A stretch of 23,740 nt of DNA from a virus: the IMG/VR virus record IMGVR_UViG_3300044972_000880, positions 1 through 23,740 of that record, one strand, 5' to 3'. The number at the start of each line of letters is the position of its first letter. Position 1 is the first letter of the stretch. Position numbers and translations under genes: made by a program. The notes under the pieces are model-generated. The model was not told the DNA's origin, did not search any database, and worked only from the letters and a program-made list of their open reading frames with translations. Below are positions 5,843-23,740 of the stretch, piece by piece.

Positions 5843-6844
5843 ATGAGAAATCAGATAGAAATACCCGTGTATCCTGAGGGTGCCTCTCAAGGCATCACCT
5901 TCAGGCATCGGGAGTTTAGTTACGCAATTCCGTCGTATTCATTCACAGATGAGTACACGCAGACGCTATGGGCGAAAAGTTTCGCCAAAAAAGCAAGAAA
6001 ACTAATAACCAAAACCGGCATAGAAAACGTCATTCTTGACGTATTCAGATACAGGGGCTCAACGCAATACAATGATCGGGTGCATCAACGCAGGCTGGCC
6101 AAGCAATTGGGCAGTTGCGACCCGTTAGTTAGGCAACCGTTTCTTGACAGAATCAAGCAACAAAATCTCACGCCGCAAGTATTCAGATACGACAGGGCAA
6201 TTGGCGTTGAGATAGAATGCCTAAAGCCTGCTGGAAGGCGAGTTGATATTCCCATATGGTCAAGGGCCAAGGGTGATGGCAGTATTAGGCCCGCACCCAA
6301 CACAGAGGCCGTTGAGTATGCCATCCTCATAAAGCGGTCAGAGTTGGAGCACAGGCTTCACAAATTCTGCGGTCTAATCTCTGACCATAGGGTAAACACA
6401 TCATGTGGACTTCATGTCCACATTGATTGCCGGGGTCGCACGGAAGATGATGTGCGTAAGATTGCCAAGCGGATGACCGCGTGGATGATTGCACTCAAGG
6501 AATTCGTTCCCGAGAGTAGGCGCAACAACACGGACTACGCCGCGCTTTCTTTCTCGGAAACCAACCGCTACCGCGCCATCAACTTCACGGCGTTCAAGAA
6601 GTATAAGACGTTGGAAATTCGGTTGCACAGTGGCACCGTTGATTACACGAAAATCATTGCATGGATTAGACTGTGCGAGCTATTGTTTGTGATTAACGTA
6701 AAGCCCAAGGCGGGGGCTGAGGGCGTTGCGGCTCTCTGTCAATTGCCCTTGACTGAATACGAGAAAAGCTACTGGCTCAAGCGTCACCAGCAGCTAAATC
6801 CCGGCCATTACAGCAGCAGCACGCCAAGCACGGAAAGCGAGTGA
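5843..6844 (+). CDS. Amidoligase-family enzyme (glutamine synthetase-like COOH-NH2 ligase)
   Basis: A 333-residue protein with the hallmarks of the Pfam 'putative amidoligase' family: GVEIEC at residues 121-126 (metal/ATP-binding Glu residues), GDGSI at 144-148, the strongly conserved SCGLHVHID at 187-195, RYRAINF at 242-248 and TLEIRLHSGTVD at 256-267. Enzymes of this fold use ATP to join a carboxylate to an amine, forming amide or peptide bonds. Residues 1-115 are a basic N-terminal extension of unknown role, and the tail after residue 318 is Ser-rich. The next gene is a class II glutamine amidotransferase, the known genomic partner of this family, so the pair may make or modify a peptide or cell-wall linked compound. 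The substrate is unknown. Confidence 0.87.
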   Translation: MRNQIEIPVYPEGASQGITFRHREFSYAIPSYSFTDEYTQTLWAKSFAKKARKLITKTGIENVILDVFRYRGSTQYNDRVHQRRLAKQLGSCDPLVRQPFLDRIKQQNLTPQVFRYDRAIGVEIECLKPAGRRVDIPIWSRAKGDGSIRPAPNTEAVEYAILIKRSELEHRLHKFCGLISDHRVNTSCGLHVHIDCRGRTEDDVRKIAKRMTAWMIALKEFVPESRRNNTDYAALSFSETNRYRAINFTAFKKYKTLEIRLHSGTVDYTKIIAWIRLCELLFVINVKPKAGAEGVAALCQLPLTEYEKSYWLKRHQQLNPGHYSSSTPSTESE

Positions 6845-6913: not shown

Positions 6914-7732
6914 ATGTGTAAACTAGCAATCGTTACTAAGCATGACAGCACCAAACTTGGTGCTATCATTGTCAATGCGTGGAAAGAAATGTCCACGACA
7001 GAGAGAGATGGATTCGGGGCGGCGTGGGTTGGCCCGAATGGAAAGATTGGTTATGTCAAAAGCTCGCAGCCTTCGTTTCTGCCTGAGTTGCCAGCGTTCT
7101 GCTCGGCATTTTCAGACGGCAATGGACTCAAGAGTGATGGCAGTGCCCTCATCATTCATGGTCGCACGGCAACGTGTGGTGTGAATGTGGGAAATACCCA
7201 CCCAATGATGGGCAACAACTGTGCATTGGTGCACAACGGTGTTGTGAGTTCCAAGCGTTTCCACAACACGGAAACCACTTGTGACTCCGAGCTGTTGCTC
7301 CATGCGTGGAAGGCGGATGGTATTGACGCGGTGGCCAAGGATATTTCCGGCTACTATGCGTTCGCCATTCTCCAGCGCATCAGGGGCAAGACGGTGCTCG
7401 ACATCGTGCGAGACGACAGGGCGCAGCTCAAGGTGGGCAAGATTGACGATGGTTGGGCATTCGCCACGACGCCCTCGTTGCTTGCCACACTGGGCTCAAG
7501 CTATCTGTCGGACTACAAGCCAAACACCCATACATCATTTGTAGATGGCGAGGTGTATTCCGTGGAAAACTTCATCCCGGCGGAGGCTGATAAGCGTCTT
7601 GAGAAAGCCGCAGAGAAAGCCATTGGTATGAGTGACATGGCCACGCGATACAGGGAGAGCACCAATTGGCGTTCGTATGAAGCCGCCAGAGCGAAACAGG
7701 AGGCAATGGACCTCGGTTGGGGTGCTGCATAA
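6914..7732 (+). CDS. Class II glutamine amidotransferase (Ntn hydrolase)
   Basis: A 272-residue protein whose second residue is Cys (MCKLAI), the N-terminal nucleophile of class II glutamine amidotransferases once Met is removed. Further family motifs are DGFGAAW at residues 32-38, HGRTATCG at 82-89, NTHPM at 94-98, LVHNGVV at 105-111 and DSELLLH at 124-130. These bind glutamine and form the oxyanion hole. The enzyme would release ammonia from glutamine or process a gamma-glutamyl bond. The domain ends near residue 215, followed by an Ala/Glu-rich helical tail of unknown role. It has no synthetase domain of its own, so the adjacent amidoligase is the likely acceptor enzyme. The start at 6914 is fixed by the need for Cys2. 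Confidence 0.9.
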   Translation: MCKLAIVTKHDSTKLGAIIVNAWKEMSTTERDGFGAAWVGPNGKIGYVKSSQPSFLPELPAFCSAFSDGNGLKSDGSALIIHGRTATCGVNVGNTHPMMGNNCALVHNGVVSSKRFHNTETTCDSELLLHAWKADGIDAVAKDISGYYAFAILQRIRGKTVLDIVRDDRAQLKVGKIDDGWAFATTPSLLATLGSSYLSDYKPNTHTSFVDGEVYSVENFIPAEADKRLEKAAEKAIGMSDMATRYRESTNWRSYEAARAKQEAMDLGWGAA

Positions 7733-17620: not shown

Positions 17621-20600
17621 CTAGTAACGCTTCTTCTGCATTACGCCAGCAGACTCAAGCTGCGCCCGAAGAGGAAGGGAAATAATTCCCTTTTTCTCAA
17701 GCTGCAACAAGTAGCCTTGAGCAAGATTTGGCCCCTGTTCATCAGAAATAATCTTAGCCTTTTGAGTAAGATATTTCACCCTGTCGCCATTCGCGTCATC
17801 CAAAGACATAATGAGTTTGTCCATGTCAGTGATACCGCGAATAGATTCCGAAGCCATGCGTTTATAAGACGAAGCCAAAGACATTGCCTGAAGGGGATTG
17901 GTCTTAGCTTCGGCTTTAATCAGGGCAACAATTTGCGCCTGCGTCTTGCCACTGTCTTTCCACGCGGTGATTTGCTCTGTTGGAGACTGTGTTTCCTCGT
18001 ATGCAGATGGGGAGTAAATGCCGTCAATAGCACCCAGAATGAGCTTGGGGGCCAGCTTAGCCTCGCGCCCCATCTTCGCAATGGCGTTCTCATCCATGCC
18101 AAGCGTCTTGGCGTCTTTAGCCCATTGAGTTATCTTTTCAAATTGACGCATACGACGCTGCTCAAATTCATTGTAAGCAGCCTGTTTTTCGCTTTCCAAC
18201 AAAGATGTTTTCTTCCTCTCCTTAAACATCCGCGCATCCTCAGCGATGTTGGCATTAAAGGTTCTAGCCTCACTCGTCATTCGCTCGGGAATTGAGTAAC
18301 GCTGAATGCGTATGCCAGCTAAGTTGGCTTTTGCAATGTCACCCATGTTGGTGATTTTGCCGGACGTGCTCATCACTGGCTCATCCCAAACCTTCTTTGC
18401 GTTCTTAATGTCAGCAACCACGCTAGGGGTAAACCATTCGCCAATCAGAAAACCTCCCACATTCCCAGCAAATTTAAGCGGTGAGTCGTTTGAAGAATAA
18501 ATTGGAACCCCTTGACTATTTTCGTTTGCTCGAATCTGGAATACTGGAGAGGAATACAAGCTCACACCCAAGAACTGCTCGCCAAAAACAGACATGAAGT
18601 TCTCGGCGGCTTGCTGGCTATTGTCACCACGCATAGCAGCGGCGGCGGCTTCCATAACAATGCTCTGCGGGATATTGTAGTTGAGGTTGGAAAAACCAAC
18701 TTCATTATCACCCGTTCTGCTAATAGAAAGGAATCCGTTCTTCAGGTAATCAGGGGCTCTGCGGCGAAGGGCTTCCTGTTCATTTCTATCTATTCCGTAA
18801 TTGGAACCAGCGACTCCTGCTCCAGCAAGCAATGCAACAGTAGAAGCAATTCTCTTTGCTCCAGCTTTCTGCAACGCTGGATTCTTGCTTTTAATTTCAT
18901 CCAGACCAATCCTGAATGTATTGTAAGTTATACGGTAGCGATCAGCTGTGTAAGCAACAAATGGGTCTAGTGCGCCAACCTGAGAAGCTTTTCGTATCAC
19001 CTTCCATTGAGAGTCATAGTTGGTGTTTAACGACCTAACTTTTTCTGCGGCCATTTTCATCTGCTCTTCAAGAGAAGACTTTGGATATGCGGCTTTAATT
19101 GTTTTAAGCTCACCGCCAAATGCAAACACCTTAGAGAACGACTCTGGCGCGGAGTAAACCTTTGACAGAAAATCAATGGCATTATCAACCAGCTTTACTT
19201 TACCCTTGATAAACGAAGAGTCGAAGGCGTTAACAAAGTCTTGGGCTGGGATTGATTTGCTGTTTACGCCAAGCTCAACAAGCTTTTTGTGGAATTGAAG
19301 AGCCTTGTTTTGCGACAGTCTTCCATTGTCGGAAACAATCCCGAACTCAATTGCCATATTGCCAATTGCATTGGACCAATTGTTTTTGTCCAGCAGTTCA
19401 AGAGCATGACCTTGAGCAAACAAATCGGATGCCCCGCCATATACGTTTGAGGTATAGGCTTTGAAGGAACCAAGTGTCTTTGGGATTTTAGTAGCAGACG
19501 AGACGGTTGATAGAGCCTTCATCAACGCGGACGACTGACCGCTTGAGATTGAAGCAAAAGCGTCACGAATTGCTGGAGTTGTGAAGTATCCAGATAGGGG
19601 ATTTAATGGGTCAACAGTCTCAACAATTGACTTAGTAAGTTGATCGTTGGCGTTACGAGACATCAGGCCAAGCCTTTCCCCAATCTCAACCATGTTGCTA
19701 CGCATCTTGTAATCCGCCGCTGTTTTAGCGATGCGTGAAGACGTGTCACTAAGCAGCAACAACGGGTCGTTAATCTCACCGTAGAGCCTGCGGGTCAGGG
19801 CATCAAGATTGGGATTGCGAGCGGTAAAAATGTTTCTATACGTCTTGGCATATACCTGAGTCACATACTGACCGGCAACATCCCTATCCAATAGGCGGGT
19901 AGCTTCGTTAGTAAATTGTTGTTGAAGTTCTGCCTGTGTAAAAGTGTTTTTTGGGTCTTTTAATTTACTGGATACATGAGCATCAACCCATTCTTTGAAT
20001 ACGGCCGGGTCTGGCTTAAAGTCTGGATTGGCAAACAACTCGTAAGCCCTACGGACATAGCTTCCACGATTATCAAGAATCGTGTCGGCTATTCTTCCAG
20101 TAGCAACGCCTCTATCAACCAGTAGCGTGCTGAGTCCATCAACAGCATCACGCGCATTCTGAGCGGCTGGTTGAAGGATTGCCGGTAAATCTTCAATAGA
20201 CTTTCTTCCGTTGATGTATTCAAAAACAGAATCGTTAGCAGCTTCGCGTTGGGCACCAGCCTCAAACTTGTTCAAAGCATTATTGAGCTGTCTGTATGCA
20301 AAATTGGATTCAACCATCAAGCCCCTTGCCTCGGCATCACCGGCCTGAATCGCGGCCATGAATGGTTTAAGGGTAATTTCTGGAACCCAATTGTTTTTAA
20401 CCTTACCCATGCTAGTGCCAATTTCTTTGGCTACCGTCCCCACCTTGCGGGCAACAGACGGAGATAGCACAGCACCAGCAATAGCGTATCCAAGGCCGTA
20501 GCCCAAGTCTTCCTCAATGGTATCACCTTGAATAACACCGGCCAATCCACCTATGCCAGAGCGACCAATAGCAAAAGCAAGTCGTGGGTCAATGAATCCA

Positions 20601-21781
20601 TACTCATCCATCATGCGTTGAGCCTTAGGGGAAAGCTTTGCGCTAATGGAGTTGGATTGATCGAAGCGACGGGAAGCAACGGCAGCAGGGGTTTGCTCTG
20701 CTTGAGCAGCAAGACGAGCACGTTCCCGCACGGCTCCAACGCCTTGGCCCAGCTTTGTGTCTAGGAATGTAACTTGGGCTGTAAGAGGGTTAACAATTTC
20801 AATGGACTCTTGTGTTCCCAATTGATTGAGCTTCATCTCTCGCGCAAGCTCTTTAGCTCTCAACTCATTCTTAGCCTGAGCAAAATCCAGCGCAAGACGA
20901 CCGCGTTCCTTCAAGCCATTATCAATGGCAATAAAAGATTCCAATGCGCTATTCTGTGGTGCGCCCATTAGTATCTCTGCGGACTCCCTAGCACTCTTTG
21001 GTGCTGAAAATCCCCTTTCATTTATGCTTCTAGCAAGTTCCCTTGAAGTTGCATCGTAAGCCCTGTTGATGGCTTGAGCATCCTTGTTTGCCTGATTAAA
21101 TAGCATCTTGCCCTCAATGGCTCTTCCGCCGTAGGCAATAGCCATACTTGCGCCCAAGTTATAGGGACTGACATCAGCAATGCTTTGACCTAAACGATTC
21201 TGTTCGGCAACGGTAAGTCCCAATCCTTCAAGCGTGGAACCAGTCAAATAGTTGAGCAGGCCGGGAGCCTTACGCAATGGAGCAAATATCGTGCTCTCAA
21301 CTCCCGTTTGAATTTGCTCGGGAATGTTCATTGTTGGACGACCCTCTAATCCTCTAGCCAGTGTTTCACCGGCAAGACCGGTAGCCGCAAGAAAACCCAA
21401 AGCCGGAGCTGTTCCAACGCCTGTTGGAAGGGCTATTGCAGCAGCCGCTACTGGGCCATAGCGAGCCACCGTAGGAGCAATCTTTTTACCCACCTGAAAC
21501 GCCGCCTGACCCACCGTAGTGATGTCTTCTGGAGCAGCCTGTCTAGCTGGGCTGGCAAGAAGTATCTCATCCACCTTGCCCATAAGCTCTGCCGCCTTTT
21601 GGTCGGTGCTCTTCTGGCTTTCGATAAATGACGACTTCGCCCTATCCAGCATTGATGGCTGGGGTGCTACTGGAGCATTTTGTTCGTCAATCTTCTTAAA
21701 GATGGACACAATCTCCTCGTCATCCATTCCATCAGGAAAAGATACTTTCCCGTATTTCGGGTGGTTGATGATTTGTGGCAT
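17621..21781 (-). CDS. Very large virion protein, ejection/internal-virion type
   Basis: A 1386-residue protein, similar in size to the T7 internal core protein gp16 (1318 residues) and coded by the last gene of the minus-strand late region. It starts MPQIINHPKYGKVSFPDGMD with a PDGMDDEEI motif (residues 16-24) common at the N terminus of large phage virion proteins. Hydrophobic, Ala/Gly-rich segments occur near 107-138 and near 980-1000 (ASTVALLAGAGVAGSNYG), which could insert in a membrane. The body is largely helical. Such proteins are carried in the head and ejected to build a DNA tunnel. Residues 1-30 resemble no catalytic domain; a lysozyme motif was not found. The start overlaps the preceding gene as TAATG. 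Confidence 0.68.
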   Translation of the reverse strand: MPQIINHPKYGKVSFPDGMDDEEIVSIFKKIDEQNAPVAPQPSMLDRAKSSFIESQKSTDQKAAELMGKVDEILLASPARQAAPEDITTVGQAAFQVGKKIAPTVARYGPVAAAAIALPTGVGTAPALGFLAATGLAGETLARGLEGRPTMNIPEQIQTGVESTIFAPLRKAPGLLNYLTGSTLEGLGLTVAEQNRLGQSIADVSPYNLGASMAIAYGGRAIEGKMLFNQANKDAQAINRAYDATSRELARSINERGFSAPKSARESAEILMGAPQNSALESFIAIDNGLKERGRLALDFAQAKNELRAKELAREMKLNQLGTQESIEIVNPLTAQVTFLDTKLGQGVGAVRERARLAAQAEQTPAAVASRRFDQSNSISAKLSPKAQRMMDEYGFIDPRLAFAIGRSGIGGLAGVIQGDTIEEDLGYGLGYAIAGAVLSPSVARKVGTVAKEIGTSMGKVKNNWVPEITLKPFMAAIQAGDAEARGLMVESNFAYRQLNNALNKFEAGAQREAANDSVFEYINGRKSIEDLPAILQPAAQNARDAVDGLSTLLVDRGVATGRIADTILDNRGSYVRRAYELFANPDFKPDPAVFKEWVDAHVSSKLKDPKNTFTQAELQQQFTNEATRLLDRDVAGQYVTQVYAKTYRNIFTARNPNLDALTRRLYGEINDPLLLLSDTSSRIAKTAADYKMRSNMVEIGERLGLMSRNANDQLTKSIVETVDPLNPLSGYFTTPAIRDAFASISSGQSSALMKALSTVSSATKIPKTLGSFKAYTSNVYGGASDLFAQGHALELLDKNNWSNAIGNMAIEFGIVSDNGRLSQNKALQFHKKLVELGVNSKSIPAQDFVNAFDSSFIKGKVKLVDNAIDFLSKVYSAPESFSKVFAFGGELKTIKAAYPKSSLEEQMKMAAEKVRSLNTNYDSQWKVIRKASQVGALDPFVAYTADRYRITYNTFRIGLDEIKSKNPALQKAGAKRIASTVALLAGAGVAGSNYGIDRNEQEALRRRAPDYLKNGFLSISRTGDNEVGFSNLNYNIPQSIVMEAAAAAMRGDNSQQAAENFMSVFGEQFLGVSLYSSPVFQIRANENSQGVPIYSSNDSPLKFAGNVGGFLIGEWFTPSVVADIKNAKKVWDEPVMSTSGKITNMGDIAKANLAGIRIQRYSIPERMTSEARTFNANIAEDARMFKERKKTSLLESEKQAAYNEFEQRRMRQFEKITQWAKDAKTLGMDENAIAKMGREAKLAPKLILGAIDGIYSPSAYEETQSPTEQITAWKDSGKTQAQIVALIKAEAKTNPLQAMSLASSYKRMASESIRGITDMDKLIMSLDDANGDRVKYLTQKAKIISDEQGPNLAQGYLLQLEKKGIISLPLRAQLESAGVMQKKRY

Positions 21782-22848
21782 TACTTTTTAGGCTTTAACA
21801 AAGTATTAAAGTCTCTAACACCAACGTCAACATCGGGAGCAGAAGATCGTCCAAATATTGATGGGTTAATAGTTTTTCCGCCACCCCCAAACATACCGGG
21901 GGGCGATAGATAAACCGGGGCTCCACTAACTTCAACGCGCCATTCATTTCCATCCCAAACAGATGGAACGGTTTTTTTATTACCGGTTTCTGGGTCTTCT
22001 AAAATCAAATCTTTTTTAGTGCCGGGACGAAGCAATAGGGTTGGGGTTTCAAGACTTTTTTCAACATCGGCTATTTCAATAGCATTTAGTTTTACTCCCC
22101 TTCTTTGTTCTTCTGCGGCTACCGCACGATTTAAAGTGGCGGCTTTATCTGTTACCGCAGTAACTTTTGGAGCCTTTTGAGCTTCGGTTTGTGCCTCAAT
22201 CAATCCAATTTGAGCCTCCGTCATCTTGCGGTCAAGCTCATCGGTATTCTTGATGATAGAAATGGCTTCGCTAACCGGAACACCCTGTTGAACCAACAAG
22301 GAAAGCGTTTGTTGAGGCGAGGCTTTAGCGGCAACATTAAGTTTCTCGAAGGTCATGCCGGGAGTGTTAAGCTGTTCAGTAATTCCAGCATTTTGATTTT
22401 GACGAAGAGCCGCAACAACTCTCTCGCTTTGCTTCCTTCTTGCCTCATCAGCCATACTCTGACTCATGGCACCACCGATTACAGAGTTAAGCATTGGATT
22501 AAGGGCTTGAGCTATATTGGCCTTTTCCATGCTAGACAACTTTGGGTCGTCAATTGTTTGAGTGGTTTTCTTGACCCAATCCTTAACCTCGGGAGATATA
22601 TCCTTGAGGCTATCCACGTTTTTCACGAAAGCCTTGGTGGAAGAAATGATGCTTTTATACTGCTCCTCTTCCTTCTTCTGTTTGGCTAGTGACCCAAAAA
22701 TTTGAGCACCAACATTACCTAAATTGCTAAACATTTGGCCGTATGCTTGGCCGCCTGCTTGGATGCTTTGTGCAGCAGATTGCGCCCCCTGTGTAATGGG
22801 GGAGTAGTCAATGCGACCTAGTGCGGGATTTACGGAGCTTCCAATCAT
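21781..22848 (-). CDS. Virion protein, probable internal/ejection partner
   Basis: A 355-residue protein with no recognised domain. The N terminus is Gly/Ser/Ala/Gln-rich (GAQSAAQSIQAGGQAYGQMF, then NLGNVGAQIFGSLA), the middle is helical with repeated Gln/Glu/Lys and the C terminus has GMFGGGGK. Such composition is common in phage internal virion or tail assembly proteins. It starts 15 bases after the Hint-domain gene stop behind TTAAACACA and its stop overlaps the start of the 1386-residue protein, so the three genes form one late operon. Function is inferred from position. Confidence 0.65.
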   Translation of the reverse strand: MIGSSVNPALGRIDYSPITQGAQSAAQSIQAGGQAYGQMFSNLGNVGAQIFGSLAKQKKEEEQYKSIISSTKAFVKNVDSLKDISPEVKDWVKKTTQTIDDPKLSSMEKANIAQALNPMLNSVIGGAMSQSMADEARRKQSERVVAALRQNQNAGITEQLNTPGMTFEKLNVAAKASPQQTLSLLVQQGVPVSEAISIIKNTDELDRKMTEAQIGLIEAQTEAQKAPKVTAVTDKAATLNRAVAAEEQRRGVKLNAIEIADVEKSLETPTLLLRPGTKKDLILEDPETGNKKTVPSVWDGNEWRVEVSGAPVYLSPPGMFGGGGKTINPSIFGRSSAPDVDVGVRDFNTLLKPKK

Positions 22849-22863: not shown

Positions 22864-23740
22864 TTAGGTGGATGAGAAGGTGGCAAGTTCTTCAATCATG
22901 CTGTTAACAGCTACGCCAGACATACGATAGCCGATGTCTTCCGTCAACAAGTCATAGGAACGGGTGACGCCGCCATAGACAGCGATGGCTTCAACAACTT
23001 CGCCGCCCTTAAAGCTATTCCCCACATTGTAGTCCATCGAGCGTTCGCCTTCAATGCGGTGCATATCGCATACAGAGAAGTCCTTTCCATTATCGAGATA
23101 GAAACGATGGAAGCGTTCGGCTTCTGGGTTCTCGGCATACTCATGTTTAATGAGCACCTTAACGGGTTCGCCAGAGAAGCCAATGACGCTATCACCAGAG
23201 CGGATGTCTTCGATGGCCACTTGGCCTTCTGGTGTGTCAATAAGTTCGCCTTCTGGGATACAGAGGAATGCGGCTTTAGCACCAAGAACTTTACCGGCCA
23301 ATGCGCCTCCAACAATGCTTCCAATCCCGCCGACAATGCCGGAGGTTTTTGTAGCAGAGGCACCAGCCTTAGCAGCCGCCAATTGAGCAGCAGCAGACTG
23401 TTGAGCAATGTCTCGGTTGGTGATGTTAGCTTGATTGGCCAACGCCAAGTTAATACCCGTGTCTGGATTGTAGGTTGTTGGGGTGTTAAACGTCTTAGCC
23501 AAGTCCAGAGCATACCCTTGCTGTTGAGCAGCGGTTTGACCGGCATTGCTCTGTTGACCTAGCAGCATAGCCGTTGGGTCATACGCCGCGCCACGATAGC
23601 CTTGAGCCAAGTTGAGAGCATAAGCCCTATTAGCTTCAGCGGTAGCCGAGTCAGCTTGTCCAATTAGACCAAGGTTAGCAATGTTCTGCTGTTGCTGATT
23701 GGCGGCAAACAAACGATTCTGAGAGGCAAGGTCCATACCC
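22864..23740 (-). CDS. Virion protein with C-terminal Hint (intein-like) domain, incomplete
   Basis: The frame is open to the right edge; an in-frame ATG at 23734-23736 may be internal. The N-terminal 120 or so residues are Gln/Ala/Asn-rich (NQQQQNIANLGLIGQ), followed by an Ala/Gly helix (GIVGGIGSIVGGALAGK). From about residue 159 counted from that ATG comes LCIPEGELIDTPEGQVAIED with C159 and then GDSVIG: block A of a Hint domain. Block B is VCDMHRIEG (CxxH in place of TxxH, H226). The end has YGGVTRSYDLLTEDIGYRMS and VAVNSM (N278-S279), matching the C-terminal splicing block although the usual His before Asn is Val. It may therefore self-cleave or splice, leaving about ten residues after N278. 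Confidence 0.82.
   Translation of the reverse strand, partial: GMDLASQNRLFAANQQQQNIANLGLIGQADSATAEANRAYALNLAQGYRGAAYDPTAMLLGQQSNAGQTAAQQQGYALDLAKTFNTPTTYNPDTGINLALANQANITNRDIAQQSAAAQLAAAKAGASATKTSGIVGGIGSIVGGALAGKVLGAKAAFLCIPEGELIDTPEGQVAIEDIRSGDSVIGFSGEPVKVLIKHEYAENPEAERFHRFYLDNGKDFSVCDMHRIEGERSMDYNVGNSFKGGEVVEAIAVYGGVTRSYDLLTEDIGYRMSGVAVNSMIEELATFSST

What the first reader, a model, noticed from the sequence alone, without database searches (positions are those of the whole stretch)
22864..23740. Hint/intein-like domain at the C terminus of a virion protein with altered splicing residues
Block A Cys159, a CxxH version of block B and a terminal V-A-V-N-S block are recognisable, yet the penultimate His is Val and block B Thr is Cys. 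Only about ten residues follow the presumed cleavage site, so a true intein would have almost no C-extein. This fits autoproteolysis or covalent attachment of the virion protein to something else (as in bacterial intein-like or Hedgehog-type domains) rather than normal splicing. It could be a maturation step during assembly or ejection.
Basis: partly seen in the sequence, partly recalled or inferred. Interest (0 to 1): 0.62.

Follow-up and report, generated by a model that had tools for sequence, protein, structure and literature searches.

The report
Self-cleaving-type Hint domain on phage protein
A protein of an uncultivated phage, probably one injected into the host cell, ends in an intein/Hedgehog-type domain that keeps the residues for cutting itself free but lacks those for splicing; the same unusual version occurs in several unrelated phages and in small lipid-anchored-type proteins of Verrucomicrobiota bacteria.

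Summary
The Hint domain is real. Cys159 (C1), block-B CDMH with His226, and the block F/G end (Y261-D262 ... The ORF is cut off by the contig end; complete homologues are about 740-1270 aa. AF2 gives a confident Hint fold (pLDDT 94; Z about 17 to inteins and Hedgehog).

One correction: in two independent models Ser279, not Asn278, sits at the intein's terminal Asn. Asn278 is at the penultimate His and Met280 at +1. Canonical splicing is therefore very unlikely.

The altered residues are a conserved signature, not decay. Across 60 members, C1, His(B:10) and Asp(F:4) are invariant; among close relatives dN/dS is about 0.06. Several unrelated phage lineages carry the domain at the C-terminus of the gene just upstream of gp15/gp16-like ORFs. 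Thirty-three Verrucomicrobiota MAGs carry it, mostly in small lipoprotein-like proteins. Both settings share Lys at -5. Close phage relatives lack the domain, ending near the predicted cut and carrying a PAPS reductase gene instead.

Best reading: a non-splicing, Hog/type-B-BIL-like autoprocessing module that cuts before Cys159. Chemistry and virion location are inferred. New variant of a known kind.

The parts
22864..23739 (-). C-terminal part of the Hint-bearing ORF; frame open to the contig end, so the N-terminal several hundred residues are missing
   Evidence: Open frame at the contig edge; complete homologues about 740-1270 aa
23263..23343 (-). Gly/Ala-rich hydrophobic tail of the presumed N-extein (residues 132-158, ending K154-A-A-F157-L158 before Cys159); Lys at -5 is the conserved junction residue
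   Evidence: Tail lengths compared with Hint-less relatives; Lys -5 in 33 of 34 members from bacterial genomes and in most phage members
22867..23262 (-). Hint module, Cys159 to the C-terminus (132 residues)
   Evidence: Pfam Hint_2; AF2 and structural matches; BLAST homology between unrelated proteins starts at residue 157-159
23260..23262 (-). Cys159 = Hint residue 1, presumed nucleophile of the N-S acyl shift
   Evidence: Invariant in 60 of 60 members
23059..23070 (-). Block B C223-D-M-H226: B:7 Thr replaced by Cys; B:10 His kept
   Evidence: His 60/60; B:7 Cys 49, Ser 10, Gly 1
22951..22953 (-). Asp262 = F:4 Asp
   Evidence: Invariant 60/60
22897..22905 (-). Asn278-Ser279-Met280: structural equivalents of penultimate His, terminal Asn and +1 residue
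   Evidence: Register in two models; conserved in members found without the motif
22867..22899 (-). 11-residue C-terminal tail (Met280-Thr290), partly predicted helix at low confidence
   Evidence: AF2 helix 123-131, mean pLDDT 66 in residues 121-130
21781..22848 (-). Next ORF, 355 aa, at the gp15-like position
   Evidence: Gene order across lineages; no PHROG or PDB match
17621..21781 (-). Next ORF, 1386 aa, at the gp16-like position; weak LPD38 match
   Evidence: Gene order; LPD38 E 0.007, below cut-off

Best explanation
The last 132 residues are an exchangeable Hint autoprocessing module on a phage protein that is probably injected into the host (gp14-like by gene position). Proposed mechanism: the fold places Cys159 near His226 and Asp262. 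The Leu158-Cys159 peptide bond shifts to a thioester and is then resolved by water or a small nucleophile. This frees the N-terminal protein, which then ends in its Gly/Ala-rich hydrophobic tail, from a roughly 14-kDa Hint fragment. With Ser instead of Asn at the terminal position and Met at +1, the C-terminal steps of splicing do not occur. Shown here: Hint homology and predicted fold, residue conservation, register in predicted structures, module exchange, gene order, and the second setting in Verrucomicrobiota. Inferred: catalytic activity, cleavage as the outcome, location in the virion, and timing (assembly or ejection).
For: Cys1, His(B:10) and Asp(F:4) invariant in 60 members of 36% identity and up while other positions vary; purifying selection, median dN/dS 0.057; confident Hint fold; terminal Asn and +1 nucleophile absent by structural register in two models; homology between unrelated proteins begins at Cys159 within two residues; Hint-less relatives end 18-30 residues after a shared anchor, the predicted cut lies at 21-27, so cleavage would give nearly the Hint-less protein; gene order as in ejection operons; the junction residues Lys -5 and Phe -2 are conserved in unrelated hosts of the module. 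Type B BIL domains, which lack block G similarity, cleave without splicing, and Hedgehog uses only the first acyl shift (PMC4031507, PMC7664689).
Against: No biochemical evidence. B:7 Thr, important for Hedgehog processing (T326A strongly reduced, PMC9163320), is Cys, Ser or Gly here. The strict conservation of Asn278-Ser279-Met280 is not explained by simple hydrolysis. The register rests on predicted structures. No sequence match to T7 ejection proteins.
Confidence: 0.5

Rival explanations
1. Hedgehog-like ligation: the thioester formed at Cys159 is passed to a specific nucleophile (a lipid, an amine of another protein or cell-wall component, or the conserved Lys at -5 of the same chain), so the N-terminal part ends up covalently modified rather than merely cut.
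For: Structural match to Hedgehog Hint Z 17.0 with Ser279 at Cys400; conserved Lys -5 and Phe -2 in unrelated N-terminal partners; invariant N-S-M and near-invariant Glu(125) beyond the core; bacterial members look membrane-anchored.
Against: No sterol-recognition-like region, only a tail of roughly 10-30 residues in most members; TxxH and Cys400 themselves not kept; no acceptor known.
Confidence: 0.2
2. Catalytically silent Hint fold kept as a binding or structural domain, for instance to dock the protein during assembly.
For: Loss of B:7 Thr, terminal Asn and +1 nucleophile; presence/absence among close relatives; conserved surface-type positions such as N-S-M and Glu could be a binding face.
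Against: Cys1, His(B:10) and Asp(F:4) are 60 of 60, at positions where inert domains usually drift; homology begins at Cys1.
Confidence: 0.22
3. Protein splicing or type A BIL activity with Asn278 as the cyclising residue, joining the main protein to the short C-terminal tail.
For: Asn278 followed by Ser279 resembles an intein end; some inteins splice without a penultimate His (PMC7664689).
Against: Structural register puts Ser279 at the terminal position in two models; only 11 residues would be spliced on; Hint-less relatives show no matching tail.
Confidence: 0.05
4. A decaying mobile intein caught after losing its splicing residues.
For: Altered splicing residues; patchy presence.
Against: dN/dS 0.057; the altered residues are shared by the whole family; in the members listed the domain is at the ORF C-terminus with no room for a homing endonuclease.
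Confidence: 0.03

Closest known systems
Hedgehog C-terminal autoprocessing (Hog) Hint domain, PDB 1at0
   Same: Fold (Z 17.0 over 120 residues); Cys1 and block-B His; no terminal Asn, a small nucleophilic residue at the same place (Ser here, Cys400 there)
   Different: TxxH is CxxH; no sterol recognition region; prokaryotic; 14-17% identity
Bacterial intein-like domains, type B (and CthBIL4, PDB 2lwy, as a solved BIL)
   Same: Fold (Z 15.9); Cys1; cleavage without splicing expected when the intein block G is lost (PMC4031507)
   Different: This family has its own strict block-G-like end V-N-S-M-I-x-E, is always ORF-terminal in the members seen, and carries a conserved Lys at -5
Class 1 and class 3 inteins (Mtu RecA, gp41-1, Msm and Mch DnaB)
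   Same: Fold (Z 16-17); Cys1 (class 1); block-B His; F:4 Asp (class 1)
   Different: No terminal Asn/Gln/Asp, Met at +1, Cys at B:7, no real C-extein, not inserted in a conserved enzyme site
T7-type ejection operon gp14-gp15-gp16
   Same: Same gene order, with a medium and then a very large ORF downstream; hydrophobic Gly/Ala-rich tail
   Different: No sequence match to gp14/15/16; the first protein is much larger; no Hint or processing is mentioned in the review of ejection proteins read here

Membership tests
HINT superfamily | HINT fold | tested here: met
   AF2 pLDDT 93.9; VIA Z 17.4 to 6bs8, 17.0 to 1at0; replicated with L339
HINT superfamily | Pfam Hint_2 score above the curated cut-off | tested here: inconclusive
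   Window 24-25 bits against 28.4; four of five bacterial family members tested pass, 28.7-32.8 bits
HINT superfamily | Cys/Ser at residue 1 and block-B His | tested here: met
   60 of 60
[quoted passage not shown]
   Ser279 at that position in two predicted structures
Class 1 intein | Cys/Ser/Thr at +1 | tested here: not met
   Met280 by the same register; Met in 60 of 60, though part of most search patterns
Class 1 intein | Inserted within a host protein with a functional C-extein | tested here: not met
   11 residues follow; Hint-less relatives have no matching C-terminus
Class 3 intein | WCT motif with Cys at F:4 and no Cys1 | tested here: not met
   F:4 is Asp in 60 of 60 and Cys1 is present
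BIL type A | C-terminal His-Asn | tested here: not met
   V-N-S-M instead; Asn-Ser at the His-Asn positions
BIL type B | No similarity to intein block G; cleavage without splicing | tested here: inconclusive
   Block G residues are replaced, but the end is strictly conserved in its own way; cleavage not testable here
Hedgehog Hog domain | TxxH and Cys400 | tested here: not met
   CxxH and Ser
Hedgehog Hog domain | Cholesterol or other adduct transfer | not testable with these tools
   Needs biochemistry
T7-like ejection proteins | Operon order gp14-gp15-gp16 with growing sizes | tested here: met
   Hint gene, then about 440-750 aa, then about 970 aa or more where complete in most lineages; window 355 then 1386 aa, L304 1116 then 1610 aa, L318 and L339 about 500 then 430-550 aa; order as in PMC8954989
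T7-like ejection proteins | Sequence homology to gp14/15/16 | tested here: inconclusive
   No PHROG or PDB match; these proteins diverge fast

The most novel reading that the evidence does not exclude
A prokaryotic counterpart of Hedgehog processing: a Hint subfamily without the splicing Asn that activates the chain before Cys1 as a thioester and joins it to a specific acceptor (a lipid, an envelope amine, or the conserved Lys at -5), used by phages on an ejection protein and by Verrucomicrobiota on envelope lipoproteins.
Probability: 0.17. Interest if true: 0.88.

Novelty: new variant of a known kind. Interest (0 to 1): 0.63.

Why it matters
If the domain is active, podophage-type ejection proteins can be matured by a built-in self-cutting module, a step not mentioned in the review of ejection proteins consulted (PMC8954989). 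The finding also defines a Hint subfamily that lacks the terminal Asn yet is tightly conserved and shared between phage proteins and Verrucomicrobiota lipoprotein-like proteins. That gives a simple system for asking how Hint domains move between cutting, splicing and ligation, and which groups of bacteria these uncultivated phages meet.

Tried and rejected
Whole-ORF and Hint tblastn against 50,697 isolate phages found only ordinary inteins at weak E-values, in head, terminase, helicase and other genes. The Vibrio phage hits are true inteins in a head gene ending His-Asn-Cys. Searching with the near-identical close set returned only itself. One degenerate DNA pattern had a spacing error of one codon and was wasted. 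The 18-sequence truncated alignment was too diverse to scan with. Fold prediction of the next gene was not attempted because its alignment is too poor. The nearest annotated genome with the same late-gene order, phage C75C1, has no Hint on the matching gene. The reading of Asn278 as terminal Asn was considered and rejected on the structural register. The apparent N-S similarity to the Drosophila Hedgehog sequence was recalled from memory and, by the same register, would not be the equivalent position; it was not used. Of 241 sampled Verrucomicrobiota genomes only the query genome itself matched, so the family is patchy, not general, there. Ten paper searches found no description of a Hint domain on ejection proteins; the single paper naming both Verrucomicrobia and 'Hint domain' only lists PF13403 among enriched functions. 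That library is open-access only.

Full report
What was checked. The window is a complete IMG/VR record of 23,740 bases classed as a linear fragment. The ORF at 22864-23736 (-) is open to the contig edge, so its start is unknown. Twenty-four contigs carry close homologues. Where complete they are about 740-1270 aa, full of Asn/Gln/Ala repeats; one Hint-less homologue is 656 aa. The finding therefore concerns the C-terminal end of a large protein, not a 290-aa protein.

The domain is real. Pfam Hint_2 matches at E 5.4e-5, 24 bits against a cut-off of 28.4. In a set of 20 diverse relatives, 17 match Hint_2 and 5 match the Hint module family. A profile of the family finds the CatC, CthBIL4 and gp41-1 inteins in the PDB at E about 4e-4 to 1e-3. 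AF2 on the window sequence gives pLDDT 93.9. The best structural matches are a class 3 DnaB intein (Foldseek E 2.6e-6; VIA Z 17.4, rmsd 1.9 over 117 residues), Hedgehog 1at0 (Z 17.0) and Mtu RecA intein (Z 16.5).

Register of the active site. In nearly all structural alignments model residue 121 (Ser279) pairs with the terminal Asn of the intein: 440 in Mtu RecA, 198 in GyrA, 125 in gp41-1, 145 in MchDnaB and 737 in the VMA intein. In Hedgehog it falls on Cys400 by the same offset. A second model, made for L339, about 40% identical to the window, gives the same register. Asn278 is thus at the penultimate His and Met280 at +1. B:7 Thr is Cys223; B:10 His is His226; F:4 Asp is Asp262. This uses the residue nomenclature of PMC4031507. 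[quoted passage not shown] On that rule this is not a class 1 intein, and the normal C-terminal steps are not expected. The register rests on predicted structures, and only the ends of the aligned ranges were reported, not every pair.

Conservation. The close relatives are 92-98% identical in this domain, too close to test conservation. A generic Hint DNA pattern that uses none of the residues in question found a distant member, L304, with the same C-D-x-H and V-N-S-M-I-x-E. A pattern built on G-Y-x3-G-x-x-V-N-S-M then found about 20 diverse contigs. Because that pattern fixes V-N-S-M, a third scan used an alignment truncated before it. All nine family members it found, three of them new, carry V-N-S-M. 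In the final set of 60 (27 phage, 33 bacterial), Cys1, Asp9, His(B:10), Asp(F:4) and Thr107 are 60/60; B:7 is Cys 49, Ser 10, Gly 1; Glu125 is 59/60. Median dN/dS in the close group is 0.057 over 105 pairs. The changed residues are therefore a family signature under selection.

Module behaviour. Between unrelated proteins BLAST homology covers the Hint only, starting at residue 157-159. In the window's own clade, close relatives lack the Hint. In them the gene ends in a short hydrophobic tail and a PAPS reductase gene follows. PAPS reductase is present in 4 of 4 Hint-less close relatives tested and in 0 of 7 Hint-bearing records, while the Hint shows the reverse; several records are fragments. 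Measured from a shared anchor, the Hint-less proteins run 18-30 further residues and the predicted cut lies at 21-27. Cleavage before Cys159 would thus give almost the Hint-less protein. More distant relatives have either no module or a different one, also beginning with Cys (CWVAREVYG...), which weakly resembles the NCBIfam CFI-box-CTERM domain (E 0.003, below cut-off).

Gene context. In lineages whose neighbouring genes mostly do not match each other, the Hint gene lies directly upstream of a medium ORF and then a second ORF that is very large in most lineages. That is the order described for gp14-gp15-gp16 ejection operons in PMC8954989. No sequence match to T7 proteins was found. 'Ejection protein' is an inference from gene order.

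A second setting. A pattern scan of bacterial genomes gave 35 stretches; 34 hold this Hint subfamily, 33 of them in Verrucomicrobiota MAGs. The bacterial proteins are mostly small (about 160-320 aa). At least 23 have a lipobox-like site, mostly 18-22 residues before Cys1, then the Hint and a short tail; signal peptides were judged by this simple pattern only. Their neighbours look chromosomal by inspection, and the genomes tested have one full copy each. Lys at -5 is found in 33 of 34 and Phe at -2 in 29 of 34; most phage members also have Lys at -5. The scan pattern did not touch this region. Phage and bacterial sequences interleave in the tree, and the direction of transfer is unresolved. 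In 241 sampled genomes of the phylum only the query genome matched, so the family is patchy.

Most likely mechanism. N-S acyl shift at Cys159 assisted by His226 and Asp262, then resolution of the thioester by water or a small nucleophile, releasing the N-terminal protein. Confidence about 0.5. Ligation to a specific acceptor, as in Hedgehog, is the most interesting alternative; the conserved Lys at -5 and the invariant N-S-M argue that something beyond hydrolysis may be going on. An inert binding domain cannot be excluded without biochemistry.

Comparison and novelty. It works, on this reading, like Hog and type B BIL domains, but it fails tested defining features of class 1 and class 3 inteins, of type A BIL and of Hedgehog (TxxH and Cys400). 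It is best filed as a new subfamily of the HINT superfamily: a new variant of a known kind.

Noticed in passing
L019:8486-9289, and the matching site in L020, L024, L025, L058 (between the ORFs at window 22848 and 22864): Hint-less close relatives carry a PAPS reductase gene (PF01507) directly after the shortened protein; Hint and PAPS reductase were mutually exclusive in the 11 records tested.
   Followed up: partly
L088, L112, L114, L116, L127, L159, L169: A different C-terminal module, CWVAREVYG...IKHGE.FA..IS.KP...IRKWM, sits where the Hint sits, also beginning with Cys after the Gly-rich tail; only one of four tested gave a weak CFI-box-CTERM match.
   Followed up: partly
L323:4614-14057 and L343:2505-9851: Downstream ORFs of 3148 and 2449 aa at the gp16-like position; the part of L323 scanned had no Pfam match, L343 was not scanned.
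   Followed up: no
L387 (Alphaproteobacteria MAG contig JAURGE010000054.1): A phage-type 790-aa Hint protein nearly identical to that of viral contig L318/L326 inside a bacterial MAG: prophage or mis-binned phage contig.
   Followed up: no
window 5843-6844 and 6914-7732 (+): Amidoligase-like and glutamine amidotransferase-like genes side by side; phage C75C1 with the same late-gene order has amidoligase and gamma-glutamyl cyclotransferase genes.
   Followed up: no
window 17621-22848 (-) and matching genes of L002, L009, L016, L019: The two ORFs downstream of the Hint gene are swapped for unrelated or partly related versions among phages that are otherwise close (families fam9/18/21 and fam13/16/17).
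   Followed up: no
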